From the NCBI GenBank assembly GCA_001695595.3, contig MBPM02000089.1, forward strand, positions 62,001 to 126,000: a DNA stretch of 64,000 nt. The letters are read 5' to 3'. Below are positions 36,881-64,000 of the stretch, one piece after another. Position 1 is the stretch's first letter. Every line of letters starts with the position of its first letter. The position numbers were made by a program, and so were the translations under genes. Below the pieces are notes generated by a model, which was not told the origin of the DNA, did no database searches, and saw only the letters and a list, made by a program, of their open reading frames with translations. This stretch comes from Plasmopara viticola (Eukaryota > Oomycota > Peronosporomycetes > Peronosporales > Peronosporaceae).

Positions 36881-36945
36881 TAAGCCAAGCAAACAACTTT
36901 GCCCGGGACCCTGCTTTCAAAACTACCTTCCAGTCTCCTACAATT

Positions 36946-39995: not shown

Positions 39996-40012
39996 CTCAT
40001 TCAGCAATTTGC
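39996..40012 (+). promoter_or_regulatory. Core promoter, copy 8
   Basis: Identical 17-bp motif, 66 bp upstream of the ATG. Confidence 0.75.
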
Positions 40013-40077
40013 TAAGCCAAGCAAACAACTTTGCCCGGGACCCTGCTTTCAAAACTACCTTCCAGTCTCCTACAATT

Positions 40078-43120: not shown

Positions 43121-43137
43121 CTCATTCAGCAATTTGC
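43121..43137 (+). promoter_or_regulatory. Core promoter, copy 9
   Basis: Identical 17-bp motif, 66 bp upstream of the ATG. Confidence 0.75.
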
Positions 43138-43202
43138 TAAGCCAAGCAAACAACTTTGCCCGGGACCCTGCTTTCAAAACTACCTTCCAGTCTCCTACAA
43201 TT

Positions 43203-44453: not shown

Positions 44454-46269
44454 CCCCTCGGAGCTCCGATGCCATTTGCCAACGGTCCAATCTCTGGACA
44501 CCCATAAAAGACGAACACGGCCTCAAGAGATTTATTTGTAACACTCATGCGCTCTTCTGTGTATTCCATGTAAGCGGGTGACCAAAGTGACTTCTATACG
44601 ATTTGTACGTCTTCGCATTTAAACTTGCTGAATACATGTAATACTGTGACTAAGGTTGTTGGGACGTTATTTGACATTGCCGTCGTATTCTCTCTGGTCA
44701 CATAAAATTTGTCTGCGTATAATGTATTAGCTACTAATGCAAAGTGGAAACATCTTATTACGAAAAAAACTTGCAGAACGAGTAATAATATATTCAAGAA
44801 GCAATTGAAAAGTTATTTTGAGCAAGAAACGAAAGATCGGATAGAGCTGATTGTGCACATAAAGAGTTTAATTGGGACTCGAAATTATCTTATACACAAC
44901 TTGTAAATAAATGCAAATAGAGGAAAAGTAAGGGCGGTTTGGCTTTGCAGAGATAAAGACGATATCAAAATGATTGGCTTCTGCGTTACTAAGGTAGTAA
45001 GCACTTATTAAAAATGTCTTGTGTAAATATCCAATGTGGAGCTTCCAATAGTTGGAAGTCATTGTTGTGGCGGCAAAACCCGAGTAAAAACACCAGCCGA
45101 TGTACTTTGAATTTTTGGTAGTCACTATTTGGGGTGTAGGGGATCGCGATCGCTCTGACGGTATTAATGGCAAACGTGTTATAAAATGAGCTTGATGTAC
45201 TAAGCCCTTTTCACCTACAAATGTCCTCATTGTTTCTACGAGTGTAGCGGGTCTGTTCGAATTCAACGCTGAGTAACTTTCCACAAGAATTGATTCAATG
45301 ATAAAGGACTTTGCTATTTGCATGAAAAGGAAACCTTTGTCACGTCATTGATGGGCAGGGAAAAACCGTCATATAAATGTAAATTCAACGAACTTGAAAT
45401 TATTGTTAACGTATTGAGTACCACAAGGATCGCATAGTGTTGATTTGGTGCATCAGTCCAGTTTTTCATTTCGCTCATGGGGCTATTGATATTCGCTTGG
45501 TCTAGTTATCGCTACAGATCGTAATGGTTCACCATATATGAGATGGGTAAGAGGGGGAGCGGGATTGGCATCTTGAAGTGCGACGGAGTCGATTATTCCA
45601 TATGTGCGCATCGCGGATATATGACGGCAATTTGTTTAAAACTGATCCTCGCGTCTAAATACTGTGTCACACGAGGTAGCGTCGTTCCTCGCGCCGAGTC
45701 AGCAACAAGAACATCGTAGTAATAGGGTTGTAGGAAATAATGAAAGGAAAACTCGGATGCGCAACGAGGTTTTACGTGCTTACTTTTCAAGAGAGACATT
45801 TGTCGCACGGCTTTAAAGATACGCATTAATACTGTCTTCTCATTATCTTCGTCGTATTTCGCGTGTTGGACACTTCTGGTAAAGAAAAAGCGCCTTTGGA
45901 TGCGTCTTTACCCAGGAGATGCTGCTTGCTACCTTGTTGCACACAAGATTTGCACTTCCCTACCGAGACTTTACGCTATATCCCGAGCTTGTTAAAAGTA
46001 AATGCGCCCCGCCGGAGCTTGTTCAGCAACTTTCGTCTTAACCGGCCCGTCCGATACGCGAATAGTTGAGCTTTTCTCACTTAACGTCTCGCTGCCCATA
46101 TTAAACTTGGCGGCTGACAATCAACTTCAAGTATCTTAGACCTTAAAATGAAGAAGCGCCTCTAAATGGCTGTCCCGTACACATCCTGGTGACGAGCTCC
46201 CGTGAGATGATCTCAAGATTTGGTCGACACGATGAGAAATAGTGTGCCCCAAGACCTTGTACTCATTCA
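44454..46269. other. Array spacer 9
   Basis: The minus-strand frame reaches 151 codons (45,323 to 44,868). It has a three-codon insertion (TTKNSKYIGW instead of TTKHIGW) and a different C-terminus caused by a four-base duplication near 44,907 (AAATAAATGC). These features recur in the inverted unit at 56,620-57,075. Confidence 0.6.
44868..45323 (-). CDS. Conserved spacer ORF, function unknown (representative)
   Basis: 151 codons with an ATG (MQIAKSFIIESILVES). The same frame is open over its expected length at 17,649-18,074, 26,582-26,998, 38,633-39,049, 41,758-42,177, 48,021-48,455 and, inverted, 56,620-57,075. It is damaged in the other spacers. There is no signal peptide, zinc finger or domain that I recognise. 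Conservation of the frame mostly reflects how young the duplications are. The only hint of selection is an in-frame three-codon indel. It is divergent from the flanking gene and could be a remnant of an older element carried along in the unit. Confidence 0.2.
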   Translation of the reverse strand: MQIAKSFIIESILVESYSALNSNRPATLVETMRTFVGEKGLVHQAHFITRLPLIPSERSRSPTPQIVTTKNSKYIGWCFYSGFAATTMTSNYWKLHIGYLHKTFLISAYYLSNAEANHFDIVFISAKPNRPYFSSICIYLQVVYKIISSPN

Positions 46270-46286
46270 CTCATTCAGCAATTTGC
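46270..46286 (+). promoter_or_regulatory. Core promoter, copy 10
   Basis: Identical 17-bp motif, 66 bp upstream of the ATG. Confidence 0.75.
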
Positions 46287-46351
46287 TAAGCCAAGCAAAC
46301 AACTTTGCCCGGGACCCTGCTTTCAAAACTACCTTCCAGTCTCCTACAATT

Positions 46352-47598
46352 ATGCACATTTCCCGCATCGTCGCGCACGCTGCAATTGCTACAGCGATTG
46401 TCTCTTCGACGTTATCGCCCACAGACGCCGCTAGCGGCCTACGTGGTCCGATTGAGCAACCTACGCTGAATGAAGATTACCAGCAAACCGCCCACGAACT
46501 TGGAAGCTCTGTTGGAGGTGAGAATGAACAAAACGAAGACGAGCACCAGCAAAACGAGAACGATGGTAACAGTCCGATCGACGGTAGTTCGGCCGCTGGA
46601 CCCCCGAGGTCAGGACCGAACACACAGAGTATCCCGCCTTTTGGAGCTCAGAAGCCGCCTGCCAACGATCCAATTCCCGGAACTCTTTGCAGAAGGGTAA
46701 CCCACCCATTGGATCTCCAATGCCGCCTGCCAACCGTCCGAACACCGAACAACCTTTTGGAGATGGGAACCCACCCCATGAAAGTCAAATGCCGCCTGGC
46801 AATGGTCCGACCAACGATCAACCTTTCGTGGGTGGTAAACCACCCCATGGAGGTCAGATGCCGAATGGTGGCCCACCTAATGAAAGTCAAATGCCGCCTG
46901 ACAATGGTCCGACCAACGATCAACCTTTCGTGGGTGGTGATTCGCCCAATAAAGGGCAGATGTCGCGTGGTAATCCACCTCAAGAAGGCCAGACGCCGCA
47001 TGGTGACCGACCCCATGAAGGTCAGATGCCGCCTGTCAATGGTCCGACCAAAGATCAACAATTTATGGGCGGTAACCCGCCTCTTGGTGGTCCGAAGCCG
47101 CTTGCCGAGGGTCCGATCGCCGAACAACCTTTCATGGGTGGTAACTCGCCCCTTACAGGTCCGATGCCAGTGGCTGGTAACCCATCCCTTGGAAGTTCGA
47201 TGCCGCCTGCGAACGGTCCGCTCTCCGGATTTCCTTTCATGGGTGGCAATATGCCTTTCGGAGCTCCGATGCCGCCTGCCATCGGTTTGATCACTGGATA
47301 CGTATTGCTCAATGGCAATCCGCCTTTTGGACCTCCAATGCTGCCTCCAAATGGTCCAATTTCTCAAAACCCTTTCCAGGGTGGTAGTTCGCCCTTTGGA
47401 TCTTCGATGCCGCCTGCTAACGGTCCAATTTCGCAGCAGCCTTTCCTAAGTGGTAAACCGCCCCTTGAAGGTCCAAAGCCGCCTACCAATGGTCCGATCC
47501 CCGACCAACCTTTGCAAAAGGGTACTCCACCCCTCGGAGCTCCGATGCCACCTGCCAACGGTCCGAACTCCGACCAACTTTTGCAAAAGGGTAATTAA
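46352..47598 (+). pseudogene. Repeat protein copy 10 (long form), frameshifted
   Basis: One G is missing near 46,679 (ATTCCCGGAACTC; copy 11 has CCCGGGAAC), after residue 109. The frame from the ATG continues in the alternative Arg/Leu-rich frame to 47,290 (312 residues). The original frame continues intact to 47,598. It carries GPISQQ as copy 9 and a unique FLSGK. In the signal peptide one Ala is Ser (TAIVSST). Its 3' flank has CCAGCGG instead of CCAACGG, as at the copia A insertion site in copy 11. Confidence 0.65.
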
Positions 47599-49401
47599 CC
47601 CCTCGGAGCTCCGATGCCAATTGCCAGCGGTCCAATCTCTGGACACCCATAAAAGACGAACACGGCCTCAAGAGATTTATTTGTAACACTCATGCGCTCT
47701 TCTGTGTATTCCATGTAAGCGGGTGACCAAAGTGGCTTCTATACGATTTGTACGTCTTCGCATTTAAACTTGCTACATACATTTAATACTGTGATTAAGA
47801 TTGTTGGGTCAATATTTGACATTGTCTCTCTAGTCACATTAAATTTGTCTGCGTATAATGTATTAGCTGCTAATGCAAAGTGGAAACATCTTATTACGAA
47901 AAAAACTTGCAGAACGAGTAATAACATATTCAAGAAGCAATTGAAAAGTTATTTTGAACAAGAAACGAAAGATCAAATAAAGCCGATTGTGCACATAAAG
48001 AGTTTAATTGGGACTCGAAATTATCTTATACACAACTTGTAAATGCAAATAGAGGAAAAGTAAGGGCGATTTGGCTTTGCAGAGATAAAGACGATATCAA
48101 AATGATTGGCTTCTGCGTTACTAAGGTAGTAAGCACTTATTAAAAATGTCTTGTGTAAATATCCAATGTGGAGCTTCCAATAGTTGGAAGTCATTGTTGT
48201 GGCGGCAAAACCCGAGTAAAAACACCAGCCGATGTACTCTGAATATTTGGTAGTCACTATTTGGGGTGTAGGGGATCGCGATCGCTCTGACGGTATCAAT
48301 GGCAAACGTGTTATAGAATGAGCTTGATGTACTAAGCCTTTTTCACCTTCAAATGTCCTCATTGTTTCTACGAGTGTAGCGGGTCTGTTCGAATTCGACG
48401 CTGAGTAACTTTCCACAAGAATTGATTCAATGATAAAGGACTTTGCTATTTGCATGAAAAGGAAACCTTTGTCACGTCATTGATGGGCAGGGAAAAACCG
48501 TCATATAAATGTAAATTCAACGAAATTGAAATTATTGTTAACGTATTGAGTACCACAAGGATCGCATAGTGTTGATTTGGTGCATCAGTCCAGTTTTTCA
48601 TTTCGCTCATGGGGCTATTGATATTCGCTTGGTCTAGTTATCGCTACAGATCGTAATGGTTCACCATATATGAGATGGGTAAGAGGGGGAGCGGGATTGG
48701 CATCTTAAAGTGCGACGGATTCGAAAATTTTATATGTGCGCATCGCGGATATATGACAGCAATTTGTTTAAAACTGATCCTCGCGTCTTAATACTGTGTC
48801 ACACGAGGCAGCGTCGTTCCTCGCGCCGAGTCAGCAACAAGAACATCGTAGTAATAGGGTTGTAGGAAATCATGAAAGGAAAACTCAGATGCGCAACGAG
48901 GTTTTACGTGCTTACTTTTCAAGAGAGACATTTGTTGCACGGCTTTAAAGATACGCATTAATACTGTCTTCTCAATATCTTCGTCGTATTTCGCGTGTTG
49001 GACACTTCTGGTAAAGAAAAAGCGCCTTTGGATGCGTCTTTACCCAGAAGATGCTGCTTGCTACCTTGTTGCACACAAGATCTGCACTTCCCTACCGAGA
49101 CTTTACGCTATATGCCGAGCTTGTTGAAAGTAAATGCGCCCAGCCGGAGCTTGTTCGGCAACTTTCGTCTTAACCGGCCCGTCCGATACGCGAATAGTTG
49201 AGCTTTTCTCACTTAACGTCTCGCTGCCCATATTAAACTTGGCGGCTGACAATTAACTTCAAGTATCTTAGACGTTAAAATGAAGAAGCGCCTCTAAATG
49301 GCTGTTCCGTACACATCCTGGTGACGAGCTCCCGTGAGATGATCTCAAGATTTGGTCGACACGATGAGAAATAGTGTGCCCCAAGACCTTGTACTCATTC
49401 A
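47599..49401. other. Array spacer 10
   Basis: The minus-strand frame is open for 144 codons (48,455 to 48,021). Near 47,820 it lacks the GCCGTCGTATTC stretch of the other spacers. The same deletion marks the inverted spacer at 57,260, which groups these two units. Confidence 0.6.
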
Positions 49402-49418
49402 CTCATTCAGCAATTTGC
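49402..49418 (+). promoter_or_regulatory. Core promoter, copy 11
   Basis: Identical 17-bp motif, 66 bp upstream of the ATG. Confidence 0.75.
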
Positions 49419-49483
49419 TAAGCCAAGCAAACAACTTTGCCCGGGACCCTGCTTTCAGAACTACCTTCCAGTCTCCTACAATT

Positions 49484-50569
49484 ATGCACATTTCCCGCAT
49501 CGTCGCGCACGCTGCAATTGCTACAGCGATTGTCGCTTCGACGTTATCGCCCACAGACGCCGCTAGCGGCCTACGTGGTCCGATTGAGCAACCTACGCTG
49601 AATGAAGATTACCAGCAAACCGCCCACGAACTTGGAAGCTCTGTTGGAGGTGAGAATGAACAAAAAGAAGACGAGCACCAGCAAAACGAGAACGATGGTA
49701 ACAGTCCGATCGACGGTAGTTCGGCCGCTGGACCCCCGAGGTCAGGACCGAACACACAGAGTATCCCGCCTTTTGGAGCTCAGAAACCGCCTACCAACGA
49801 TCCAATTCCCGGGAACTCTTTGCAGAAGGGTAATCCACCCATTGGATCTCCAATGCCGCCTGCCAACCGTCCGAACACCGAACAACCTTTTGGAGATGGG
49901 AACCCACCCCATGAAAGTCAAATGCCGCCTGGCAATGGTCCGACCAACGATCAACCTTTCGTGGGTGGTAAACCACCCCATGGAGGTCAGATGCCGAATG
50001 GTGGCCCACCTAATGAAAGTCAAATGCCGCCTGACAATGGTCCGACCAACGATCAACCTTTCGTGGGTGGTGATTCGCCCAATAAAGGGCAGATGTCGCG
50101 TGGTAATCCACCTCAAGAAGGCCAGACGCCGCATGGTGACCGACCCCATGAAGGTCAGATGCCGCCTGTCAATGGTCCGACCAAAGATCAACAATTTATG
50201 GGCGGTAACCCGCCTCTTGGTGGTCCGAAGCCGCTTGCTGAGGGTCCGATCGCCGAACAACCTTTCATGGGTGGTAACTCGCCCCTCACAGGTCCGATGC
50301 CAGTGGCTGGTAACCCATCCCTTGGAAGTTCGATGCCGCCTGCGAACGGTCCGCTCTCCGGATTTCCTTTCATGGGTGGCAATATGCCTTTCGGAGCTCC
50401 GATGCCGCCTGCCATCGGTTTGATCACTGGATACGTATTGCTCAATGGCAATCCGCCTTTTGGACCTCCAATGCTGCCTCCAAATGGTCCAATTTCTCAA
50501 AACCCTTTCCAGGGTGGTAGTTCGCCCTTTGGATCTTCGATGCCGCCTGCTAACGGTCCAATTTCCTAG
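49484..50569 (+). CDS. Repeat protein copy 11, C-terminally truncated
   Basis: 361 residues. Long form up to MPPANGPIS, where TAG at 50,567-50,569 replaces the Gln codon of other copies. About 54 residues (two and a third repeats) are lost. The former stop is still in frame at 50,729-50,731, so the only lesion is substitution. N-terminal marks: QKEDEHQ instead of QNEDEHQ, KPPTNDPIPGNS. The signal peptide is intact and a repeat protein of normal type, only shorter, could still be made. Copia element A sits 192 bp downstream. Confidence 0.75.
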   Translation: MHISRIVAHAAIATAIVASTLSPTDAASGLRGPIEQPTLNEDYQQTAHELGSSVGGENEQKEDEHQQNENDGNSPIDGSSAAGPPRSGPNTQSIPPFGAQKPPTNDPIPGNSLQKGNPPIGSPMPPANRPNTEQPFGDGNPPHESQMPPGNGPTNDQPFVGGKPPHGGQMPNGGPPNESQMPPDNGPTNDQPFVGGDSPNKGQMSRGNPPQEGQTPHGDRPHEGQMPPVNGPTKDQQFMGGNPPLGGPKPLAEGPIAEQPFMGGNSPLTGPMPVAGNPSLGSSMPPANGPLSGFPFMGGNMPFGAPMPPAIGLITGYVLLNGNPPFGPPMLPPNGPISQNPFQGGSSPFGSSMPPANGPIS

Positions 50570-50761
50570 CAGTCTTTCCCGAGTGGTAAACCGCCCCTTG
50601 AAGGTCCAAAGCCGCCTACCAATGGTCCGATCCCCGACCAACCTTTGCAAAAGGGTACTCCACCCCTCGGAGCTCCGATGCCACCTGCCAACGGTCCGAA
50701 CTCCGACATACTTTTGCAAAATGGTAATTAACCCCTCGGAGCTCCGATGCCAATTGCCAGC
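50570..50761 (+). other. Unread 3' part of copy 11 up to the copia insertion
   Basis: Holds the remaining repeats after the early stop, the ancestral stop (50,729-50,731) and the first part of the in-frame continuation. It ends in CCAGC, which is the left target-site repeat of copia element A. Confidence 0.8.
50757..50761. repeat. Target-site duplication half (CCAGC), 5' of element A
   Basis: CCAGC directly precedes the 5' LTR of A. Its partner is not at the 3' end of A (GTTTA) but at the 3' end of element B (57,451-57,455, as reverse complement), where the uninterrupted gene sequence resumes (CCAGCGGTCCAATC). Confidence 0.85.
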
Positions 50762-50907
50762 TGTTAACATTACACCGCTGAATGCATGTTGAACAGGTGG
50801 ATGGCTTCACAGTAATTACAAGTACGTCACAATTAGCAATTACATATGGTAGCCGTTCATTGGTCAGGATAAATATATTCACTTCGGTTTTTACTTTCTT
50901 CTCAACA
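50762..50907 (+). repeat. Element A 5' LTR
   Basis: 146 bp, TG...CA ends with TGTT/AACA inverted termini. It contains an AT-rich TATA-like stretch (ATAAATATATT) about 30 bp before the end. Diagnostic base C at 50,837, shared with the 3' LTR of element B. Confidence 0.95.
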
Positions 50908-50949
50908 GGTTAACAGCCGCAACAAGCTCAAGCAACGTTCTCGCCCAAT

Positions 50950-53900
50950 ATGAACAAGCGCACCGAAGTCCTCCTAGGAAGTGGTAACTATTACCACTGG
51001 GAGTTTAACATGAGGATGACCCTGGCGCGGAAGGGTCTTCTGGGACACATCATGGCTGTCAAGGAAGAGAAGGACGTCACGGAGGCGTGGCTGGTTAATG
51101 ATGCCAAGGCGTTAGGCATCATTGCTCAAGGCGTTGAGATCCAGCACCAGACCAAGATTCGGTCGGCTACGCGTGCTATGGAGGCGTGGGGAACCCTCCG
51201 CGATTTCTACAATCGCTCGACTCTTCACAATCGTGTTGTGATGACTCGTCGTCTACATGAGTTCAAGATGGAAAGTGGAACAAGCATGGCAGAGCATCTG
51301 GACTCTTTTGACGAGCTAGTAGTGGGACTACAGACTACGGGAGAGCAAATTGATGAGTCACGCCAGCTGGTGGTACTTCTCAGCAGTCTACCTTCGGAGT
51401 ACGACTTGATTTCGTCGATTGTGGAAAATGCAAGGGACATTTCGTTGATAGAAGTCAAGGAGAAGCTGCTCAAAGAGTCGGAGAAGCTGGAGAGGAAAGA
51501 AGCTACAGAGAAAGCGTTTCGCGTAAATGGAAATGGAAATGCTAGAAGATTTAAAGGTGGACGGGACAATGGACGAAAGGGTGGCCCTCCACGCAATAAC
51601 GGCGGATTCAAGGGCAAGTGCTTCAACTGTGACCAGTTTGGACACATGAAGCGGAACTGCCCGGCCGGTAAAAGATTCAACAGCGACGACACGGTGTTTG
51701 CTGCTGGTGAAGGGAAGTCATCAGGATGGCTGATTGACAGTGGAGCAACTTCCCACATGACCCCACACAGGAAGGACTTGTTTGATTACAAGGGCCTAGA
51801 AGCTAGCATCGAAGTTACGATTGCAGACGGGAAGAAGTTGCTTGTTAAAGGAGTCGGCACGGTAAAATGGACTGGATTGAACGGAATGAGGATTTGCATG
51901 GTTGAAGTTCTGCACATTCCCGGACTCGACAGAAGGTTGCTGTCAGTTGGCAAGTTGGCAGAACGTGGCATGAGTGTGGAATTCTCGCGTTCGTCATGTG
52001 TCATTTGGAACAAGAAGCAAGCAATTGCGTCGGGCACAAAAGTTGGAAAGTCGTATTTTCTTGACTATGAGCAAGAAGAAGCATGTCTCGTTGAATATAC
52101 TGGGGCTGACAATCAGTGGGAGCTTTGGCATGCACGCATGGGGCACCCCAGCAAGGATGCGCTGATCAGGACACAGCGATTGACTAATGGTATCCCAATT
52201 ATCAAGCAAAGTGTGGAAAAATTGTGTGCCGGGTGTTTGAAGGGCAAGCAGACGATCACGGTGTTTCCGTCTTGTTCAATGACAAAGACGACACGTGTGT
52301 TGGAGCGTGTTCACACAGATGTCATGGGGCCAATGCGAACTATCTCGAAGGGTGGTGCCAAATACATTCTCACGTTTGTGGATGACTTTTCACGATATGT
52401 TGCAATTTTTCTGATCAAGAGCAAGAGTGAAGTTGCTGGCAAGTTCAAGGAGTTTCTGACATTATACGAAAACCAGTGGGGTGCACGACTAAGATGTTTG
52501 CGATCCGACAACGGAACCGAGTTCGTAAACAAGAAAATGGCAGGAATATGTCAAGAGAACGGCATTGTACACCAGCGCTCCGTCCCATACAGCCCGCAGC
52601 AGAACGGAGTAGCGGAGCGTATGAACAGGACAATTATGGAGAAAGCCCGCAGCATGTTACACTACAAGAGCGTATCGACGGAATGGTGGGCGGAAGCGGT
52701 AAATACAGCGGTTTATTTAATTAATCGCTCCAGCAATGCGGTCCATCCTGACACCACGCCGTATGAGCTAGTTTTCAAAATGAAGCCTCGAATGGATCAC
52801 CTGCGCGTATTTGGTTCGCAAGGCTACGCTCATATTGACGATGTGAAACGGACCAAACTGGAACCCAAGAGTTTCAAGTGTATGTTTCTTGGCTATGCAG
52901 AGAATGTCAAGGGCTATCGCGTGTTTGACTTGGAGAATGCCAAGATTAAAGTGACCCGCTCTGTAAAGTTGGATGAGCGTGAGGTGGGCGGCATCTACGA
53001 CACGCAAGAGCTTAAGCCGGAAACAATTGTTCAAATAGTTAAGGATGGTGATGAAGTCAATGTTCAGCATCAAGTGGATCGACAGTCAGTTCCGGACGAT
53101 CCCATGGGAGCTGTCGAAGAGACAGTCGAGGATGTCAATATGGAGGATGTAAATCGTACGCCAAGCGCAGTTGTACAGCGGCTAATGCCTTCTGAGAGCC
53201 CTGTACGAAACGGGCTTGAGCTAACGGAGTATCATCAACCTTCCCAAGTGCAACAAGAAGATCGTTTGGTGTTTCGGCCTAAATTGGAGCGAACACGAGT
53301 AAGACGTGAGCCAGTGTTTATGCTAAGAAACGGTTCCGATGGTGGAGAGTCAACAGAAGGAAGTGAGGGCCCACCGACTCCAAAGCGTGCTAGGATTGAC
53401 GAAGATGGACTAATTGCGGAAGCTTTTCTTGCCTACGCTGTGAATATTGACGATGATATGGACTCACCGACTACTTATACTCAAGCAATGGATGCTGAGC
53501 TTCGCTCTCACGAAGAGAATAAAACCTGGACATTGCAGCCACGAGGGGAGATTGGACGCACAATTGGATCACGATGGGTATTTGCCAAAAAGCGTGATCA
53601 GAATGGCGCTATCGTGCGATACAAGGTACGACTAGTCGCGAAAGGTTTCAAGCAGAAGTATGGCGTTGACTTTTTCGAGACATATTCCCCGGTTGCCAAC
53701 ATGAATTCGATCCGAATAATTCTCGCGGTATGTGTTGAATGTGGCTATCAAATGGAACAGCTGGACGTCGACACGGCTTTTCTTAATAGCGTGTTGACGG
53801 ACAACGTTTTTATGGAAGTTCCGCTTGGTGTCGACAATGCTGAAGGAAACATATGTCAACTAAACAAGGCTATTTACGGACTTAAGCAAGCAGCGAGTGC

Positions 53901-55011
53901 CTGGAACAAGACAATACATCGTGTCTTCATCAGGAATGGCTTTAAGAGTTGCGGAGCAGATCAATGTGTTTATGTCAAGAGAACTAAAGAAGGTTTTGTG
54001 TACGTATGTCTTTATGTCGATGATATGATCATTGCAGCCAAGACGAGCGACGAGATTCTAGAGGTCAAGGGGATGCTTAAAAATGTTTTCAAGATGAAGG
54101 ATCTCGGTATTGCGAAGTTCATCTTGGGCATGGAGATCGACCACGACATGACAGCTTCCACACTAATGATCAAGCAAACACGCTACATTAGCGACGTGGC
54201 TGAGCGATTTGGGCAGAAAAACGCCAAGAACGTCGACAATCCGTGTACGTCCGGTCTCAAGCTGTCAACATCACAGTCACCAAGTACAGAAGCTGAGCGT
54301 TCAGAGATGCGGTCAAGACCATACCGCTCACTAATTGGATGTCTGCTATATGTTACAACTTGCACTCGGCCGGACGTCGCATACATCGTGACACAACTGT
54401 CTCGATTTCTCGAAAAACCGGGGTTACCACATTGGAACGCCGCAATTCGTGTATTGCGCTACTTAAATTCGACACGTCATCATGGGATCGTTTATCAAAG
54501 AGGGACGGGAAAGGTGATTGTTGAAGCTTTTTCGGATGCTGACTGGGGTAGCAACACCGATGACAGATGGTCTGTCTCAGGTGTGTTGATCAACATTGGT
54601 AAAGCTCCGGTTGTATTCAAGTCCAAGTATCAGAGAACAGTTGCACTAAGTTCCGCAGAAGCAGAGTATATGGCGCTCAGCTTGTGCACACAAGAAGTAC
54701 TTTGGGCGCGCGCAATGCCAAAGGACATGGGTCACGAGCAAGTTGAAGGCACACAGGTTTGGGAAGACAACCAAGGTGCTATTGCGTTAGCCAATAACGC
54801 CGGATACCATGCTAGGACGAAGCATGTGGACATCAAGCACCACTTTATTCGTGAGAACGTGCAAGAAGGACTGTTGAAGATCGAATATATCGACACGAAG
54901 AGTCAGCTTGCAGATATGCTGACGAAGGCAGTTGGGACCAAGATGCTTAAGTATCTGCGCGAAGCCACAGGAATCAAGACCAAGTCAGCAACAAAGGACA
55001 CACAGCATTAG
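50950..55011 (+). CDS. Copia Gag-Pol polyprotein, element A
   Basis: 1,353 residues in one frame, typical copia order. Gag: UBN2-like region, then zinc knuckle C224-C227-H232-C237 (CFNCDQFGHMKRNC). Protease: D263-S-G-A-T. Pre-integrase finger H394/H399/C426/C429. Integrase catalytic triad D457, D520, E556 (D-62-D-35-E). Reverse transcriptase: D941 in QLDVDTAF and YVDD with D1024-D1025. RNase H: D1196 (SDADW) and E1237 (SSAEAEY). Near residue 847 a 12-residue segment present in element B (ASDDAMKWREAM) is missing, removing the conserved W-x-x-AM motif before the RT domain. The polyprotein would drive cytoplasmic reverse transcription and nuclear integration; this copy may be inactive. Confidence 0.93.
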   Translation: MNKRTEVLLGSGNYYHWEFNMRMTLARKGLLGHIMAVKEEKDVTEAWLVNDAKALGIIAQGVEIQHQTKIRSATRAMEAWGTLRDFYNRSTLHNRVVMTRRLHEFKMESGTSMAEHLDSFDELVVGLQTTGEQIDESRQLVVLLSSLPSEYDLISSIVENARDISLIEVKEKLLKESEKLERKEATEKAFRVNGNGNARRFKGGRDNGRKGGPPRNNGGFKGKCFNCDQFGHMKRNCPAGKRFNSDDTVFAAGEGKSSGWLIDSGATSHMTPHRKDLFDYKGLEASIEVTIADGKKLLVKGVGTVKWTGLNGMRICMVEVLHIPGLDRRLLSVGKLAERGMSVEFSRSSCVIWNKKQAIASGTKVGKSYFLDYEQEEACLVEYTGADNQWELWHARMGHPSKDALIRTQRLTNGIPIIKQSVEKLCAGCLKGKQTITVFPSCSMTKTTRVLERVHTDVMGPMRTISKGGAKYILTFVDDFSRYVAIFLIKSKSEVAGKFKEFLTLYENQWGARLRCLRSDNGTEFVNKKMAGICQENGIVHQRSVPYSPQQNGVAERMNRTIMEKARSMLHYKSVSTEWWAEAVNTAVYLINRSSNAVHPDTTPYELVFKMKPRMDHLRVFGSQGYAHIDDVKRTKLEPKSFKCMFLGYAENVKGYRVFDLENAKIKVTRSVKLDEREVGGIYDTQELKPETIVQIVKDGDEVNVQHQVDRQSVPDDPMGAVEETVEDVNMEDVNRTPSAVVQRLMPSESPVRNGLELTEYHQPSQVQQEDRLVFRPKLERTRVRREPVFMLRNGSDGGESTEGSEGPPTPKRARIDEDGLIAEAFLAYAVNIDDDMDSPTTYTQAMDAELRSHEENKTWTLQPRGEIGRTIGSRWVFAKKRDQNGAIVRYKVRLVAKGFKQKYGVDFFETYSPVANMNSIRIILAVCVECGYQMEQLDVDTAFLNSVLTDNVFMEVPLGVDNAEGNICQLNKAIYGLKQAASAWNKTIHRVFIRNGFKSCGADQCVYVKRTKEGFVYVCLYVDDMIIAAKTSDEILEVKGMLKNVFKMKDLGIAKFILGMEIDHDMTASTLMIKQTRYISDVAERFGQKNAKNVDNPCTSGLKLSTSQSPSTEAERSEMRSRPYRSLIGCLLYVTTCTRPDVAYIVTQLSRFLEKPGLPHWNAAIRVLRYLNSTRHHGIVYQRGTGKVIVEAFSDADWGSNTDDRWSVSGVLINIGKAPVVFKSKYQRTVALSSAEAEYMALSLCTQEVLWARAMPKDMGHEQVEGTQVWEDNQGAIALANNAGYHARTKHVDIKHHFIRENVQEGLLKIEYIDTKSQLADMLTKAVGTKMLKYLREATGIKTKSATKDTQH

Positions 55012-55012
55012 C

Positions 55013-55024
55013 GGTGAGTGGGAG
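55013..55024 (+). other. Polypurine tract, element A
   Basis: GGTGAGTGGGAG directly precedes the 3' LTR, the usual position of the plus-strand primer. Identical in element B (57,602-57,613, reverse). Confidence 0.7.
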
Positions 55025-55170
55025 TGTTAACATTACACCGCTGAATGCATGTTGAACAGGTGGATGGCTTCACAGTAATTACAAGTACGTCAAAATTAGT
55101 AATTACATATGGTAGCCGTTCATTGGTCAGGATAAATATATTCACTTCGGTTTTTACTTTCTTCTCAACA
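55025..55170 (+). repeat. Element A 3' LTR
   Basis: 146 bp. Carries A at 55,093 and T at 55,100, the latter shared with the 5' LTR of element B rather than with its own partner LTR. Confidence 0.95.
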
Positions 55171-55591
55171 GTTTACCACCCACGAAAGGTTGATCGTTGG
55201 TCGGACCATTGCCAGGCGGCATTTGACTTTCATGGGGTGGGTTCCCATCTCCAAAAGCTTGTTCGGTGTTCGGACGGTTGGCAGGCGGCTTCTGAGCTCC
55301 AAAAGGCGGGATACTCTGTGTGTTCGGTCCTGACCTCAGGGGTCCAGCGGCCGAACTACCGTCGATCGGACTGTTACCATCGTTCTCGTTTTGCTGGCGC
55401 TCGTCTTCGTTTTGTTCATTCTCACCTCCAACAGAGCTTCCAAGTTCGTGGGCGGTTTGCTGGTAATCTTCATTCAGCGTAGGTTGCTCAATCGGACCAC
55501 GTAGGCCGCTAGCGGCGTCTGTGGGCGATAACGTCGAAGCGACAATCGCTGTAGCAATTGCAGCGTGCGCGACGATGCGGGAAATGTGCAT
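55171..55591 (-). pseudogene. Repeat protein copy 12, inverted 5' fragment
   Basis: Signal peptide, acidic segment and first repeats in minus orientation (ATG at 55,589-55,591), cut by the 3' LTR of A at GGTAAAC. Exactly one 23-residue repeat (69 bp) is missing after GAQKPPA relative to copy 2. Other marks: a changed base before the ATG (GATATG), DERQQ instead of DEHQQ, GPLRSG instead of GPPRSG, EQAFGDG. It contains the FVGGK start of the long-form block. The open frame would run a few codons into the LTR (to 55,154). Confidence 0.9.
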
Positions 55592-55656
55592 ATCTGTAGG
55601 AGACTGGAAGGTAGTTTTGAAAGCAGGGTCCCGGGCAAAGTTGTTTGCTTGGCTTA

Positions 55657-55673
55657 GCAAATTGCTGAATGAG
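55657..55673 (-). promoter_or_regulatory. Core promoter, copy 12 (inverted)
   Basis: Reverse complement of the 17-bp motif, at the standard distance from the fragment's ATG. A short truncated secreted peptide could still be transcribed from here. Confidence 0.7.
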
Positions 55674-57455
55674 TGAATGAGTACAAGGTCTTGGGGCACA
55701 CTATTTCTCATCGTGTCGACCAAATCTTGAGATCATCTCACGGGAGCTCGTCACCAGGATGTGTACGGAACAGCCATTTAGAGGCGCTTCTTCATTTTAA
55801 GGTCTAAGATACTTGAAGTTGATTGTCAGCCGCCAAGTTTAATATGGGTAGCGAGACGTTAAGTGAGAAAAGCTCAACTATTCGCGTATCGGACGGGCCG
55901 GTTAAGACGAAAGTTGCTGAACAAGCTCCGGCTGGGCGCATTTACTTTCAACAAGCTCGAGATATGGCGTAAAGTCTTGGTAGGGAAGTGCAAATCTTGT
56001 GTGCAACAAGGTAGCAAGCAGCATCTTCTGGGTAAAGACGCATCCAAAGGCGCTTTTTCTTTACCAGAAGTGTCCAACACGCGAAATACGACGAAGATAA
56101 TGAGAAGACAGTTTTAATGCGTATCTTTAAAGCCGTGCAACAAATGTTTCTCTTGAAAAGTAAGCACGTAAAACCTCGTTGCGCATCCGAGTTTTCCTTT
56201 CATGATTTCCTACCACCCTATTACTACATTGTTCTTGTTGCTAACTCGGCGCGAGGAACGACGCTACCTCGTGTGACACAGTATTTAGACGCGAGGATCA
56301 GTTTTAAACAAATTGCCGTCATATATCCGCGATGCGCACATATGGAATTTTCGACTCCGTCGCACTTTAAAATGCCAATCCCGCTCCTCCTCTTACCCAT
56401 CTCATATATGGTGAACCATTACGATCTGTAGCGATAACTAGACCAAGCGAATATCAATAGCCCCATGAGCGAAATGAAAAACTGGACTGATGCACCAAAT
56501 CAACACTATGCGATCCTTGTGGTACTCAATACGTTAACAATAATTTCAAGTTCGTTGAATTTACATTTATATGACGGTTTTTCCCTGCCCATCAATGACG
56601 TGACAAAGGTTTACTTTTCATGCAAATAGCAAAATCCTTTATCATTGAATCAATTCTTGTGGAAAGTTACTCAGCGTCGAATTCGAACAGACTCGCTACA
56701 CTCGTAGAAACAATGAGGACATTTGTAGGTGAAAAGGGCTTAGTACATCAAGCTCATTCTATAACACGTTTGCCATTGATACCGTCAGAGCGACCGCGAT
56801 CCCCTACACCCCAAATAGCGACTACCAAATATTCAAAGTACATCGGCTGGTGTTTTTACTCGGGTTTTGCCGCCACAACAATGACTTCCAACTATTGGAA
56901 GCTCCACATTGGATATTTACACAAGACATTTTTAATAAGTGCTTACTACCTTAGTAACGCAGAAGCCAATCATTTTGATATCGTCTTTATCTCTGCAAAG
57001 CCAAATCGCCCTTACTTTTCCTCTATTTGCATTTATTTACAAGTTGTGTATAAGATAGTTTCGAGTCCCAATTAAACTCTTTATGTGCACAATCAGCTTT
57101 ACTTGATCTTTCGTTTCTTGTTCAAAATAACTTTTCAATTGCTTCTTGAATATGTTATTACTCGTTCTGCAAGTTTTTTTCGTAATAAGATGTTTCCACT
57201 TTGCATTAGCAGCTAATACATTATACGCAGACAAATTTAATGTGACTAGAGAGACAATGTCAAATATTGACCCAACAATCTTAATCACAGTATTAAATGT
57301 ATTTAGCAAGTTTAAATGCAAAGACGTACAAATCGTATAGAAGCCACTTTGGTCACCCGCTTAAATGGAATACACAGAAGAGCGCATGAGTGTTACAAAT
57401 AAATCTCTTGAGGCCGTGTTCGTCTTTTATGGGTGTCCAGAGATTGGACCGCTGG
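55674..57455. other. Inverted array spacer between copia elements
   Basis: A complete spacer in reverse orientation. The spacer frame is on the plus strand here (56,620-57,075, 151 codons) with the same three-codon insertion as spacer 9. It also has the deletion near 57,260 seen in spacer 10. It ends at the 3' flank of a repeat gene (ACGAACACG..., CCAATCTCTGG) and then GCTGG, next to element B. Its variants fit a position directly downstream of copy 11. Confidence 0.8.
57451..57455. repeat. Target-site duplication half (GCTGG), 3' of element B
   Basis: Reverse complement of CCAGC. It adjoins the 3' LTR end of B and continues into the gene 3' flank that is interrupted at 50,761. It completes the duplication that starts at element A. 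Confidence 0.85.
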
Positions 57456-57601
57456 TGTTGAGAAGAAAGTAAAAACCGAAGTGAATATATTCATCCTGAC
57501 CAATGAACGGCTACCATATGTAATTGCTAATTGTGACGTACTTGTAATTACTGTGAAGCCATCCACCTGTTCAACATGCATTCAGCGGTGTAATGTTAAC
57601 A
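57456..57601 (-). repeat. Element B 3' LTR
   Basis: 146 bp. On the element's strand it has C at the diagnostic site (57,526, G on plus), like the 5' LTR of A, plus a private G in GGATGAATAT. Confidence 0.95.
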
Positions 57602-57613
57602 CTCCCACTCACC
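57602..57613 (-). other. Polypurine tract, element B
   Basis: Same 12-base purine-rich tract as in A, next to the 3' LTR. Confidence 0.7.
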
Positions 57614-57614
57614 G

Positions 57615-60600
57615 CTAATGCTGTGTGTCCTTTGTTGCTGACTTGGTCTTGATTCCGGTGGCTTCGCGCAGATACTTAAGCATCTTGGTCCCAACTGCCT
57701 TCGTCAGCATATCTGCAAGCTGACTCTTCGAATCGATATATTCGATCTTCAACAGTCCTTCTTGCACGTTCTCACGAATAAAGTGGTGCTTGATGTCCAC
57801 ATGCTTCGTCCTAGCATGGTATCCGGCGTTATTGGCTAACGCAATAGCACCTTGGTTGTCTTCCCAAACCTGTGTGCCTTCAACTTGCTCGTGACCCATG
57901 TCCTTTAGCATTGCCCGCGTCCAAAGAACTTCTTGTGTGCATAAGCTGAGAGCCATATACTCAGCTTCCGCTGAGCTCAGCGCAACTGTCCGCTGGTACT
58001 TCGACTTAAATACCACTGGTGCGCTTGCAATCATGACCATAATTCCCGAGACCGAGCGTCTGTCATCCGTGTTGCTGCCCCAATCTGCATCCGAGTATGC
58101 CTTGACCGTAACGCTTTCAGTTCCTCGGTAGATGATACCGATTTGACGCGTGGTCTTCAGATACCGTACTACTCGAATTGCTGCGCTCCAATGTTGTAGT
58201 CCTGGGTTCTCCAGAAAACGTGATAGCTGCGTCACCACGTAAGCAATATCAGGCCGATTGCATGTCGTTATGTACAGCAGGCATCCAATCAAAGAGAGAT
58301 AAGGCTTTGATCGCATTGTCGACCGTCCCTCTTCCGTTGTGGGTGACTGCTTTGACGACAGCTTCAATCCTGATACGCAAGGGTTTTCAACACTTTTGGC
58401 ATCTTGTTGACCGAATCGCTTGACCACGTCATCGATGTAGCGAGTCTGTTTGATCATCAATACTCCAGCTGATCTGTCGTGATCAATTTCCATACCCAAA
58501 ATAAATTCCGCCTGACCAAGCTCCTTCATCTTGAAAGCATTCTTGAGTACTTCCTTTACTTGATTCAATTCTTTGCTGCTTCTTGCTGCGATAATCATGT
58601 CATCCACATATAGTCCAACGTAAGCAAAACCTTCTTTAGTTCTCTTGACATAAACACATTGATCTGCTCCGCAACTCTTAAAGCCATTCCTGATGAAGAC
58701 ACGATGTATTGTCTTGTTCCAGGCACTCGCTGCTTGCTTAAGTCCGTAAATAGCCTTGTTTAGTTGACATATGTTTCCTTGAGCATTGTCGACACCAAGC
58801 GGAACTTCCATAAAAACGTTGTCCGTCAACACGCTATTAAGAAAAGCCGTGTCGACGTCCAGCTGTTCCATTTGATAGCCACATTCAACACATACCGCGA
58901 GAATTATTCGGATCGAATTCATGTTGGCAACCGGGGAATATGTCTCGAAAAAGTCAACGCCATACTTCTGCTTGAAACCTTTCGCGACTAGTCGTGCCTT
59001 GTATCGCACGATAGCGCCATTCTGATCACGCTTTTTGGCAAATACCCATCGTGATCCAATTGTGCGTCCAATCTCCCCTCGTGGCTACAATGTCCAGGTT
59101 TTATTCTCTTCGTGAGAGCGAAGCTCAGCATCCATTGCTTCACGCCATTTCATTGCATCGTCGCTTGCCATTGCTTGAGTATAAGTAGTCGGTGAGTCCA
59201 TATCATCGTCAATATTCACAGCGTAGGCAAGAAAGGCTTCCGCAATTAGTCCATCTTCGTCAATCCTAGCACGCTTTGGAGTCGGTGGGCCCTCACTTCC
59301 TTCTGTTGACTCTCCACCATCGGAACCGTTTCTTAGCATTAGCACTGGCTCACGTCTTACTCGTGTTCGCTCCAATTCAGGCCGAAACACCAAACGATCT
59401 TCTTGTTGCACTTGGGAAGGTTGATGATACTCCGTTAGCTCAAGCCCGTTTCGTACAGGGCTCTCAGAAGGCATTAGCCGCTGTACAACTGCGCTTGGCG
59501 TACGATTTACATCCTCCATATTGACATCCTCGACTGTCTCTTCGACAGCTCCCATGGGATCGTCCGGAACTGACTGTCGATCCACTTGATGCTGAACATT
59601 GACTTCATCACCATCCTTAACTATTTGAACAATTGTTTCCGGCTTAAGCTCTTGCGTGTCGTAGATGCCGCCCACCTCACGCTCATCCAACTTTACAGAG
59701 CGGGTCACTTTAATCTTGGCATTCTCCAAGTCAAACACGCGATAGCCCTTGACATTCTCTGCATAGCCAAGAAACATACACTTGAAACTCTTGGGTTCCA
59801 GTTTGGTCCGTTTCACATCGTCAATATGAGCGTAGCCTTGCGAACCAAATACGCGCAGGTGATCCATTCGAGGCTTCATTTTGAAAACTAGCTCATACGG
59901 CGTGGTGTCAGGATGGACCGCATTGCTGGAGCGATTAATTAAATAAACCGCTGTATTTACCGCTTCCGCCCACCATTCCGTCGATACGCTCTTGTAGTGT
60001 AACATGCTGCGGGCTTTCTCCATAATTGTCCTGTTCATACGCTCCGCTACTCCGTTCTGCTGCGGGCTGTATGGGACGGAGCGCTGGTGTACAATGCCGT
60101 TCTCTTGACATATTCCTGCCATTTTCTTGTTTACGAACTCGGTTCCGTTGTCGGATCGCAAACATCTTAGTCGTGCACCCCACTGGTTTTCGTATAATGT
60201 CAGAAACTCCTTGAACTTGCCAGCAACTTCACTCTTGCTCTTGATCAGAAAAATTGCAACATATCGTGAAAAGTCATCCACAAACGTGAGAATGTATTTG
60301 GCACCACCCTTCGAGATAGTTCGCATTGGCCCCATGACATCTGTGTGAACACGCTCCAACACACGTGTCGTCTTTGTCATTGAACGAGACGGAAACACCG
60401 TGATCGTCTGCTTGCCCTTCAAACACCCGGCACACAATTTTTCCACACTTTGCTTGATAATTGGGATACCATTAGTCAATCGCTGTGTCCTGATCAGTGC
60501 ATCCTTGCTGGGGTGCCCCATGTGTGCATGCCAAAGCTCCCACTGATTGTCAGCCCCAGTATATTCAACGAGACATGCTTCTTCTTGCTCATAGTCAAGA

Positions 60601-61709
60601 AAATACGACTTTCCAACTTTTGTGCCCGACGCAATTGCTTGCTTCTTGTTCCAAATGACACATGACGAACGCGAGAATTCCACACTCATGCCACGCTCTG
60701 CCAACTTGCCAACTGACAGCAACCTTCTGTCGAGTCCGGGAATGTGCAGAACTTCAACCATGCAAATCCTCATTCCGTTCAATCCAGTCAATTTTACCGT
60801 GCCGACTCCTTTAACAAGCAACTTCTTCCCGTCTGCAATCGTAACTTCGATGCTAGCTTCTAGGCCCTTGTAATCAAACAAGTCCTTCCTGTGTGGGGTC
60901 ATGTGGGAAGTTGCTCCACTGTCAATCAGCCATCCTGATGACTTCCCTTCACCAGCAGCAAACACCGTGTCGTCGCTGTTGAATCTTTTACCGGCCGGGC
61001 AGTTCCGCTTCATGTGTCCAAACTGGTCACAGTTGAAGCACTTGCCCTTGAATCCGCCGTTATTGCGTGGAGGACCACCCTTTCGCCCATTGTCCCGTCC
61101 ACCTTTGAATCTTCTAGCATTTCCATTTCCATTTACGCGAAACGCTTTCTCTGTAGCTTCTTTCCTCTGCAGCTTCTCCGACTCTTTGAGCAGCTTCTCC
61201 TTGACTTCTATCAACGAAATGTCCCTTGCATTTTCCACAATCGACGAAATCAAGTCGTACTCCGAAGGTAGACTGCTGAGAAGTACCACCAGCTGGCGTG
61301 ACTCATCAATTTGCTCTCCCGTAGTCTGTAGTCCCACTACTAGCTCGTCAAAAGAGTCCAGATGCTCTGCCATGCTTGTTCCACTTTCCATCTTGAACTC
61401 ATGTAGACGACGAGTCATCACAACACGATTGTGAAGAGTCGAGCGATTGTAGAAATCGCGGAGGGTTCCCCACGCCTCCATAGCACGCGTAGCCGACCGA
61501 ATCTTGGTCTGGTGCTGGATCTCAACGCCTTGAGCAATGATGCCTAACGCCTTGGCATCATTAACCAGCCACGCCTCCGTGACGTCCTTCTCTTCCTTGA
61601 CAGCCATGATGTGTCCCAGAAGACCCTTCCGCGCCAGGGTCATCCTCATGTTAAACTCCCAGTGGTAATAGTTACCACTTCCTAGGAGGACTTCGGTGCG
61701 CTTGTTCAT
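57615..61709 (-). pseudogene. Copia Gag-Pol polyprotein, element B, with one stop
   Basis: 1,364 codons from the ATG, all domains present as in A (zinc knuckle, DSG protease, DD35E integrase, YVDD RT, RNase H). A single TAG (complement of 59,085-59,087) replaces the CAG of A in TWTLQPRGE. It splits the frame into an 874-residue Gag-protease-integrase product and an RT/RNase H part. B keeps the W-x-x-AM segment that A lacks. Other changes include HAHMGHP for HARMGHP beside the zinc finger. Unless the stop is read through, B makes no RT. Confidence 0.92.
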
Positions 61710-61751
61710 ATTGGGCGAGAACGTTGCTTGAGCTTGTTGCGGCTGTTAACC

Positions 61752-61897
61752 TGTTGAGAAGAAAGTAAAAACCGAAGTGAATATATTTATCCTGACCAAT
61801 GAACGGCTACCATATGTAATTACTAATTGTGACGTACTTGTAATTACTGTGAAGCCATCCACCTGTTCAACATGCATTCAGCGGTGTAATGTTAACA
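61752..61897 (-). repeat. Element B 5' LTR
   Basis: 146 bp. On the element's strand it carries T at the diagnostic site (61,822, A on plus), like the 3' LTR of A. Only 42 bp separate it from the gag start codon. Confidence 0.95.
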
Positions 61898-63243
61898 AAA
61901 AGTAAGGGCGATTTGGCTTTGCAGAGATAAAGACGATATCAAAATGATTGGCTTCTGCGTTACTAAGGTAGTAAGCACTTATTAAAAATGTCCTGTGTAA
62001 ATATCCAATGTGGAGCTTCCAATAGTTGGAAGTCATTGTTGTGGCGGCAAAACCCGAGTAAAAACACCAGCCGATGTACTTTGAATATTTGTTAGTCGCT
62101 ATTTGGGGTGTAGGGGATCGCGGTCGCTCTGACGGTATCAATGGCAAACGTGTTATAGAATGAGCTTGATGTACTAAGCTCTTTTCACCTACAAATGTCC
62201 TCATTGTTTCTACGAGTGTAGCGGGTCTGTTCGAATTCGACGCTGAGTAACTTTCCACAAGAATTGATTTAATGATAAAGGACTTTGCTATTTGCATGAA
62301 AAGGATACCTTTGTCACGTCATTGATGGGCAGGGAAAAACCGTCATATAAATGTAAATTCAACGAAATTGAGATTATTGTTAACGTATTGAGTACCACAA
62401 GGATCGCATAGTGTTGATTTGGTGCATCAGTCCAGTTTTTCATTTCGCTCATGGGGCTATTGATATTCGCTTGGTCTAGTTATCGCTACAGATCGTAATG
62501 GTTCACCATATATGAGATGGGTAAGAGGAGGAGCGGGATTGGCATCTTAAAGTGCGACGGAGTCGAAAATTCCATATGTGCGCATCGCGGATATATGACG
62601 GCAATTTGTTTAAAACTGATCCTCGCGTCTAAATACTGTGTCACACGAGGTAGCGTCGTTCCTCGCGCCGAGTCAGCAACAAGAACATCGTAGTAATAGG
62701 GTTGTAGGAAATAATGAAAGGAAAACTCGGATGCGCAACGAGGTTTTACGTGCTTACTTTTCAAGAGAAACATTTGTTGCACGGCTTTAAAGATACGCAT
62801 TAATACTGTCTTCTCATTATCTTCGTCGTATTTCGCGTGTTGGACACTTCTGGTAAAGAAAAAGCGCCTTTGGATGCGTCTTTACCCAGAAGATGCTGCT
62901 TGCTACCTTGTTGCACACAAGATTTGCACTTCCCTACCAAGACTTTACGCCATATCCCGGGCTTGTTGAAAGTAAATGCGCCCAGCCGGAGCTTGTTCAG
63001 CAACTTTCGTCTTAAATGGCCCGTCCGATACGCGAATAGTTGAGCTTTTCTCACTTAACGTCTCGCTGCCCATATTAAACTTGGCGGCTGACAATCAACT
63101 TCAAGTATCTTAGACCTTAAAATGAAGAAGCGCCTATAAATGGCTGTTCCGTACACATCCTGGTGACGAGCTCCCGTGAGATGATCTCAAGATTTGGTCG
63201 ACACGATGAGAAATAGTGTGCCCCAAGACCTTGTACTCATTCA
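61898..63243. other. Array spacer 12, truncated by element B
   Basis: Direct orientation again. The spacer begins at AAAAGTAAGGGCG, so the first part of the usual spacer and the 3' end of a gene are missing (about 1.24 kb relative to unit 9). The minus-strand frame (62,297 down) runs into the LTR. Confidence 0.8.
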
Positions 63244-63260
63244 CTCATTCAGCAATTTGC
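63244..63260 (+). promoter_or_regulatory. Core promoter, copy 13
   Basis: Identical 17-bp motif, 66 bp upstream of the ATG. Confidence 0.75.
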
Positions 63261-63325
63261 TAAGCCAAGCAAACAACTTTGCCCGGGACCCTGCTTTCAA
63301 AACTACCTTCCAGTCTCCTACAATT

Positions 63326-64000
63326 ATGCACATTTCCCGCATCGTCGCGCACGCTGCAATTGCTACAGCGATTGTCGCTTCGACGTTATCGCCCACAGAC
63401 GCCGCTAGCGGCCTACGTGGTCCGATTGAGCAACCTACGCTGAATGAAGATTACCGGCAAACCGCCCACGAACTTGGAAGCTCTGTTGGAGGTGAGAATG
63501 AACAAAACGAAGACGAGCACCAGCAAAACGAGAACGATGGTAACAGTCCGATCGACGGTAGTTCGGCCGCTGGACCCTCGAGGTCAGGACCGAACACACA
63601 GAGTGGTATCCCGCCTTTTGGAGCTCAGAAGCCGCCTGCCAACGATCCAATTCCCGAATACTCTTTGCAGAAGGGTAACCCACCCATTGGATCTCCAATG
63701 CCGCCTACCAACCGTCCGAACACCGAACAACCTTTTGGAGATGGGAACCCACCCCATGAAAGTCAAATGCCGCCTGGCAATGGTCCGACCAACGATCAAC
63801 CTTTCGTGGGTGGTAAACCACCCCATGGAGGTCAGATGCCGAATGGTGGCCCACCTAATGAAAGTCAAATGCAGCCTGACAATGGTCCAACCAACAATCA
63901 ACTTTTCGTGGGTGGTGATTCGCCCAATAAAGGGCAGATGTCGCGTGGTAATCCACCTCAAGAAGGCCAGACGCCGCATGGTGACCGACCCCATGAAGGT
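63326..64000 (+). CDS. Secreted Pro/Gly-rich repeat protein, copy 13 (partial, long form)
   Basis: Open for 225 codons to the window edge; the 3' end is outside. The long-form block is present up to GDRPHEG. Variants: DYRQTAH for DYQQTAH, GPSRSG for GPPRSG, extra Gly (QSGIPP), EYSLQKG as in copy 1, and several changes in the block (QMQPDNGPTNNQLFVGG). It is among the more diverged members, yet no stop or frameshift is seen. Signal peptide unchanged. Confidence 0.8.
   Translation, partial: MHISRIVAHAAIATAIVASTLSPTDAASGLRGPIEQPTLNEDYRQTAHELGSSVGGENEQNEDEHQQNENDGNSPIDGSSAAGPSRSGPNTQSGIPPFGAQKPPANDPIPEYSLQKGNPPIGSPMPPTNRPNTEQPFGDGNPPHESQMPPGNGPTNDQPFVGGKPPHGGQMPNGGPPNESQMQPDNGPTNNQLFVGGDSPNKGQMSRGNPPQEGQTPHGDRPHEG

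What the first reader, a model, noticed from the sequence alone, without database searches (positions are those of the whole stretch)
50757..57455. Array inversion by recombination between two oppositely oriented copia elements
The 5' flank of A and the 3' flank of B together make one perfect insertion site (CCAGC duplicated; gene sequence continuous across it). The diagnostic LTR base agrees: A 5' and B 3' LTRs have C, A 3' and B 5' LTRs have T. The simplest history is two elements in opposite orientation that recombined, inverting the 2.3-kb unit segment between them and swapping element halves.
Basis: partly seen in the sequence, partly recalled or inferred. Interest (0 to 1): 0.85.

Follow-up and report, generated by a model that had tools for sequence, protein, structure and literature searches.

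The report
Inverted gene-array segment between two retrotransposons
Two near-identical jumping elements facing each other in a repeated gene cluster of what looks like the grapevine downy mildew genome appear to have recombined and flipped the DNA between them, a known kind of accident that here left only half of the textbook signature, while a complete signature of the same accident turned up elsewhere in the same genome.

Summary
Two Ty1/copia elements, A (50762-55170, +) and B (57456-61897, -), flank a 2285-bp array piece (55171-57455) that is reversed. A's 5' flank and B's 3' flank both carry CCAGC and map to one unit position, overlapping by exactly 5 bp, at 10 of 10 sister units in the window. 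LTR base 76 is C in just these two LTRs of A and B, in 0 of 70 LTRs of 35 related copies, and in 2 of 237 other exact-context matches genome-wide. So A's 5' end and B's 3' end were one insertion; inversion by recombination between opposed elements is the best reading.

The other flanks (A 3' GTTTA, B 5' CTTTT) form no site and lie 1.9 kb apart in the unit; their LTRs differ at base 69, which agrees within 35 of 35 other copies. A third element or another event is needed.

A fuller case of the same family, both duplications exchanged, lies on contig C18. The mechanism is well known and a large inversion in this species is already in print, so interest is moderate. No reads were available; assembly error remains possible.

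The parts
17503..50761 (+). tandem array of 2.9-3.1-kb units, all forward: one partial and ten further units, the last ending at A
   Evidence: unit matches on the contig
50757..50761 (+). CCAGC, 5' copy of the target-site duplication of the first element (E1)
50762..55170 (+). copia element A, 4409 bp, read as a hybrid: 5' end from E1, 3' end from another element (E2)
   Evidence: Pfam gag, integrase, reverse transcriptase
50762..50907 (+). A 5' LTR (69C, 76C)
53990..54725 (+). tract of a second copia family inside A (edges uncertain by 10-25 bp); each junction occurs once in the genome at up to 2 mismatches
55025..55170 (+). A 3' LTR (69A, 76T)
55171..57455 (-). S: reversed array piece, 2285 bp, from unit start to within the repeat part of one gene copy, cut at 55171
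57451..57455 (-). CCAGC (read on -), 3' copy of E1's target-site duplication
57456..61897 (-). copia element B, 4442 bp, read as a hybrid: 3' end from E1, 5' end from another element (E3)
57456..57601 (-). B 3' LTR (69C, 76C, 110G; 110G in 0 of 70 other LTRs)
61752..61897 (-). B 5' LTR (69C, 76T)
61898..64000 (+). R: forward unit sequence resuming at the unit position equivalent to 48056; continues beyond the window

Best explanation
Copia element E1 inserted forward at the start of the unit that holds S, duplicating CCAGC. At least one related element (E2) lay in reverse orientation at the far end of S, and most likely a third (E3), also reversed, lay at R. Homologous recombination between E1 and an opposed element inverted the DNA between them and left two hybrids. 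Recombination between the two same-orientation elements, before or after, deleted the DNA between them and left an end pair with no target duplication. Shown: the shared E1 site, the shared rare LTR base, the reversed S, the non-matching second pair. Inferred: the exchange itself, its order, and the third element.
For: Both E1 flanks map to one position with 5-bp overlap in 10 of 10 forward sister units in the window; nine of those read CCAAC and one CCAGC, so the variant is itself informative. 76C in A5' and B3', 0 of 70 LTRs in 35 other copies, 2 of 237 other exact-context matches. 29 of 35 copies typed have perfect 5-bp duplications, so lack of one is meaningful. Base 69 agrees within 35 of 35 other copies (3 A/A, 32 C/C) but is A in A3' and C in B5'. 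Undoing the flip returns S to the orientation of the array left of A. The same family shows both exchanged duplications on C18.
Against: The second site does not close, so more than one event is needed. No lost partner end was seen on C89, where 2730 of 286730 bases were not read. The LTR count is small: cross pairs differ by 1 base each, within-element pairs by 2 each. A 5' and B 5' are each other's nearest relatives among nine copies compared (9 mismatches in 1793 bp against 18-38), which suggests sister copies or later conversion and blurs the origin of each half. No second copy of S above 96% was found (37 of 78 candidates scored), so the uninverted state was not seen. 76C also exists at two other places.
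Confidence: 0.62

Rival explanations
1. Assembly error: the assembler crossed between two inverted 4.4-kb copies and flipped S; the real chromosome has S forward.
For: A and B differ at 17 of the first 3200 aligned columns, apart from one 36-column gap, and lie in an array whose units are about 94-98% alike, which is hard to assemble. The contig signature would be the same.
Against: The published assembly that matches by size used reads of mean 8072 bp at 185x (PMC6660063, passages), longer than one element plus flanks. A and B differ strongly over a tract of about 730 bp. The missing second site is not explained by a flip alone. A fuller case exists on C18, though in the same assembly.
Confidence: 0.15
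2. Simple two-element reciprocal inversion, followed by loss of the second element's duplication through a later deletion next to it.
For: One of two exchanged duplications is present.
Against: Both LTR ends at the second pair are intact to the last base, so a later deletion would have had to stop exactly at an LTR end; base 69 also differs between the two LTRs.
Confidence: 0.13
3. Break repair by template switching among copia copies (break-induced replication) made the reversed join in one complex event, also leaving the foreign tract in A.
For: A carries a tract of about 730 bp from a second copia family whose junctions each occur once in the genome at up to 2 mismatches. A second reversed block with a 5-bp overlap, a ~70-bp filler and a loss of about 300 bp lies beyond R.
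Against: No duplicate of S above 96% is seen; conversion or reverse-transcription mosaicism also explains the tract.
Confidence: 0.07
4. Two independent insertions at the same unit position in different units, with LTR bases made alike by gene conversion.
For: Inverted copies can convert each other; A 5' and B 5' are unusually alike.
Against: Neither element has its own duplication, whereas 29 of 35 copies do; the reversal of S would still need a cause.
Confidence: 0.03

Closest known systems
Galileo-generated inversion 2z3 of Drosophila buzzatii (PMC2775673; abstract and passages seen)
   Same: Two copies in opposite orientation at the ends of the inverted piece, exchanged target-site duplications, chimeric copies.
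   Different: Galileo is a DNA transposon and 2z3 has both duplications exchanged; C89 here has one of two, the C18 case both.
Large inversion between haplotypes at the S-AvrRpv10 locus of Plasmopara viticola (PMC13048484; abstract start and passages seen)
   Same: Same species as inferred here; an inversion in a region rich in secreted-protein genes, with repeats mostly Copia-like.
   Different: 213 and 122 kb in the two haplotypes; the passages seen do not give breakpoints at base level or name the mechanism.
Inter-element recombination between same-orientation LTR retrotransposons, leaving a hybrid without target duplication (recalled, general knowledge)
   Same: The A 3' / B 5' pair has two intact LTR ends and mismatched flanks.
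   Different: Here it would be combined with an inversion, so the two ends sit on different elements.
Ty1/copia LTR retrotransposons
   Same: gag, integrase before reverse transcriptase, LTR with TG...CA ends, 5-bp duplications.
   Different: Nothing notable except A's tract from a second copia family.

Membership tests
Inversion by ectopic recombination of opposed elements (criteria as in PMC2775673) | Two homologous copies in opposite orientation at the ends of the inverted piece | tested here: met
   A + and B -, with reversed S between
Inversion by ectopic recombination of opposed elements (criteria as in PMC2775673) | Exchanged duplication, first site | tested here: met
   CCAGC, 5-bp overlap in 10 of 10 window units
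Inversion by ectopic recombination of opposed elements (criteria as in PMC2775673) | Exchanged duplication, second site | tested here: not met
   GTTTA versus CTTTT, unit positions 1.9 kb apart; hence not filed as a simple two-element inversion
Inversion by ectopic recombination of opposed elements (criteria as in PMC2775673) | Both copies chimeric | tested here: inconclusive
   LTR base 76 supports it for E1; internal sites give no crossover point
Inversion by ectopic recombination of opposed elements (criteria as in PMC2775673) | Uninverted arrangement in a relative or other haplotype | not testable with these tools
   No second copy of S above 96% in this assembly (37 of 78 candidates scored); no other isolate held
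Same kind, C18:418734/460225 | Opposite orientation, both duplications exchanged, each site seen whole elsewhere | tested here: met
   CATAT and AATAT exchanged; occupied sister C18:402760; empty paralogues C18:444423 and C18:433652
Same kind, C18:418734/460225 | Both copies chimeric | tested here: inconclusive
   LTR marks 136C and 45A (each 2 of 70 LTRs) show one element's ends split over the two copies; the other element has no such mark, and insides were not read
Ty1/copia | gag, integrase, then RVT_2 reverse transcriptase | tested here: met
   A: Retrotran_gag_2, rve, RVT_2 in that order

The most novel reading that the evidence does not exclude
Opposed pairs of this copia family act as recurrent inversion switches inside tandem gene arrays of this oomycete, so that array segments exist in both orientations in the population or on the two haplotypes, with repeated inter-element exchange (three elements at C89, a fuller pair at C18) shaping arrays of putative secreted proteins.
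Probability: 0.15. Interest if true: 0.55.

Novelty: new member of a known kind. Interest (0 to 1): 0.36.

Why it matters
If real, it shows at single-base resolution how copia elements rearrange a tandem array of a putative secreted-protein gene in an oomycete, with a second, fuller case in the same genome. Inversions in oomycetes are in print: one of 122-213 kb in Plasmopara viticola beside secreted-protein genes and Copia-like repeats (PMC13048484, passages) and inverted blocks in Phytophthora infestans (PMC9584435, passages). Exchanged target duplications at copia pairs in an oomycete were not seen in the titles and abstract starts listed or in those passages; most listed papers were not read, so this is not proof of absence. 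The mechanism itself is established elsewhere.

Tried and rejected
Simple two-element swap: rejected as complete because the second flank pair fails. Other E1 copies in the array, from unit amplification: apart from the four LTRs of A and B, no LTR match above 92.2% on the part of C89 read. Uninverted or allelic copy of S: next best match is 96% and is an ordinary unit (37 of 78 candidates scored). A's foreign tract as a transposing mosaic: each junction occurs once in the genome at up to 2 mismatches, so not supported. A 3' LTR as a piece of the second copia family: the five family-2 LTRs read have 69C and other differences, so not supported. Crossover point from internal sites: not resolvable. 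Protein homologues of the array gene: none at E 0.001, no Pfam family. An earlier alignment put base-69 A in 4 of 35 3' LTRs; the fourth (C18:418734) is an alignment slip at an inserted base, and reads C.

Rows dropped: one search scored 40 of 799 candidates, ranked by likeness to A's 5' end (which favours finding 76C), and gave 42 rows: A, B, 38 other copies and two LTR-only fragments. The two fragments and one copy (C202:16399; 5' end fetched in L055 but not typed, 3' end not fetched) were left out; 37 were tried and two (C19:314328, C130:56686) had no 3' LTR in the piece fetched, leaving 35. The script took the first LTR match in each piece; three 3' LTRs were incomplete (C73:33184, C36:502725, C10:860872).

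Full report
Setting. The window is C89:62001-126000 of a 92.94-Mb assembly in 358 contigs. This matches the published Plasmopara viticola assembly of isolate INRA-PV221 (92.94 Mb, 359 scaffolds in the abstract; PMC6660063, search listing, abstract and passages). From 17503 to 50761 the window holds forward tandem units of 2.9-3.1 kb. One unit's open frame (49484-50566) gives 361 residues with a signal-peptide-like start (judged by eye) and 23-residue repeats, no Pfam family and no homologue at E 0.001.

Anatomy. A is 50762-55170 on +, B is 57456-61897 on -. Both have 146-bp LTRs with TGTT...AACA ends and copia domains: A has one frame of 1353 codons with gag, integrase and reverse transcriptase; B's coding region lies in two frames. 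Between them S (55171-57455) is array sequence in reverse, 96% like the nearest unit. After B, forward unit sequence R resumes.

First site. The last 60 bases before A and the first 60 of S (turned) were each mapped on the window. At 10 of 10 forward units the two positions overlap by exactly 5 bases (in nine the 5' flank alignment stops two bases short, at the differing base). The overlap reads CCAGC at A, at B and in one neighbouring unit, CCAAC in the other nine. LTR base 76 is C in A 5' and B 3' and T in A 3' and B 5'. In 35 other copies of the family it is T in 69 LTRs and A in one. Genome-wide, in exact 30-base context, it is C at 4 places and T at 235; the two C places outside this locus are C82:236352 and C202:43919. 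So A's 5' end and B's 3' end were most likely one element, E1.

Second site. A's 3' flank is GTTTA and B's 5' flank is CTTTT; they do not match. On the neighbouring unit they fall at 49973 and 48056: read along the array this is either 1.9 kb of repeated unit or about 1.2 kb of missing unit. The two LTRs differ at base 69 (A versus C), a base that agrees within 35 of 35 other copies, 3 A/A and 32 C/C. Both LTR ends are complete. This points to two different elements, E2 and E3, whose inner ends were lost by recombination in the same orientation. A single new mutation at base 69 would weaken the LTR part of this argument, not the flank part.

Same family elsewhere. 29 of 35 copies have perfect 5-bp duplications. 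Of the six without, C18:418734 (+) and C18:460225 (-) have exchanged ones: CATAT before the first and after the second, AATAT before the second and after the first. A nearby copy, C18:402760, has CATAT on both sides. It shares the 5' flank (40 of 40 bases) and LTR base 136C with C18:418734, and the 3' flank (219 of 223) and LTR base 45A with C18:460225; 136C and 45A each occur in just those 2 of 70 LTRs. Two empty paralogues of the other site, C18:444423 and C18:433652, run straight across it; each matches the C18:460225 5' flank at 49 of 55 bases and the C18:418734 3' flank at 95% and 92%. The piece between (423161-455762, 32.6 kb) thus appears inverted by the same mechanism, with both sites accounted for. 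The other element's LTRs there bear no such paired mark, and the insides of these copies were not read. It comes from the same assembly, so it does not by itself exclude assembly error. The other four copies without duplications were not pursued.

Other rearrangement traces. A holds a tract of about 730 bp (about 53990-54725) that is 98-100% like a second copia family over most of its length, while the rest of A is family 1 (three family-2 copies and one family-1 copy compared). Each junction occurs only here at up to 2 mismatches. A 5' and B 5' are closer to each other (9 mismatches in 1793 bp) than to seven other copies (18-38). Beyond the window, a second reversed unit block (C89:126698-130039) has no LTR of this family at its ends, a 5-bp overlap on one side and a ~70-bp filler on the other.

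Limits. No reads or other isolates were available. An assembler crossing between inverted near-identical elements would leave the same trace at the first site. Published read lengths (mean 8072 bp, 185x) make it less likely, not impossible. Order of events and crossover point are unresolved.

Comparison. Galileo inversion 2z3 in Drosophila buzzatii shows three marks of this mechanism: opposite orientation, exchanged duplications, chimeric copies (PMC2775673, abstract and passages). C18 meets orientation and both duplications, and has LTR marks of one element split over the two copies. C89 meets orientation and one of two duplications. A large inversion between haplotypes of Plasmopara viticola, in a region rich in secreted-protein genes and Copia-like repeats, is in print (PMC13048484, passages); no link to these elements was tested. 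I file the mechanism as known, and this locus as a further, more complex example.

Noticed in passing
G000:C18:418734-423160 (+) and about C18:455763-460225 (-): Fuller inversion signature of the same copia family: exchanged CATAT/AATAT duplications, rare LTR bases of one element split over the two copies, an intact sister copy and two empty paralogues; 32.6 kb between.
   Followed up: yes
G000:C89:126698-130039 (right of the window): Second reversed unit block in the same array, no LTR of this family at its ends, 5-bp overlap on the left, ~70-bp filler on the right that is 97% like C89:202470-202542.
   Followed up: partly
53990-54725: Tract of a second copia family inside A, each junction once in the genome at up to 2 mismatches; conversion tract or reverse-transcription mosaic.
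   Followed up: partly
G000:C73:393454: A copia 5' LTR preceded by the element's own 3' internal end (TGAGTGGGAG), suggesting a tandem element from unequal exchange.
   Followed up: no
49484-50566 and sister units: Array gene: 361 residues, signal-peptide-like start, 23-residue Pro/Gly-rich repeats, no Pfam family, no homologue at E 0.001.
   Followed up: partly
G000:C89:207000-286000 and contigs C201, C19: Further, mostly more diverged (about 75%) copies of the unit, on C89 mostly in reverse orientation up to about 268 kb and forward after.
   Followed up: no
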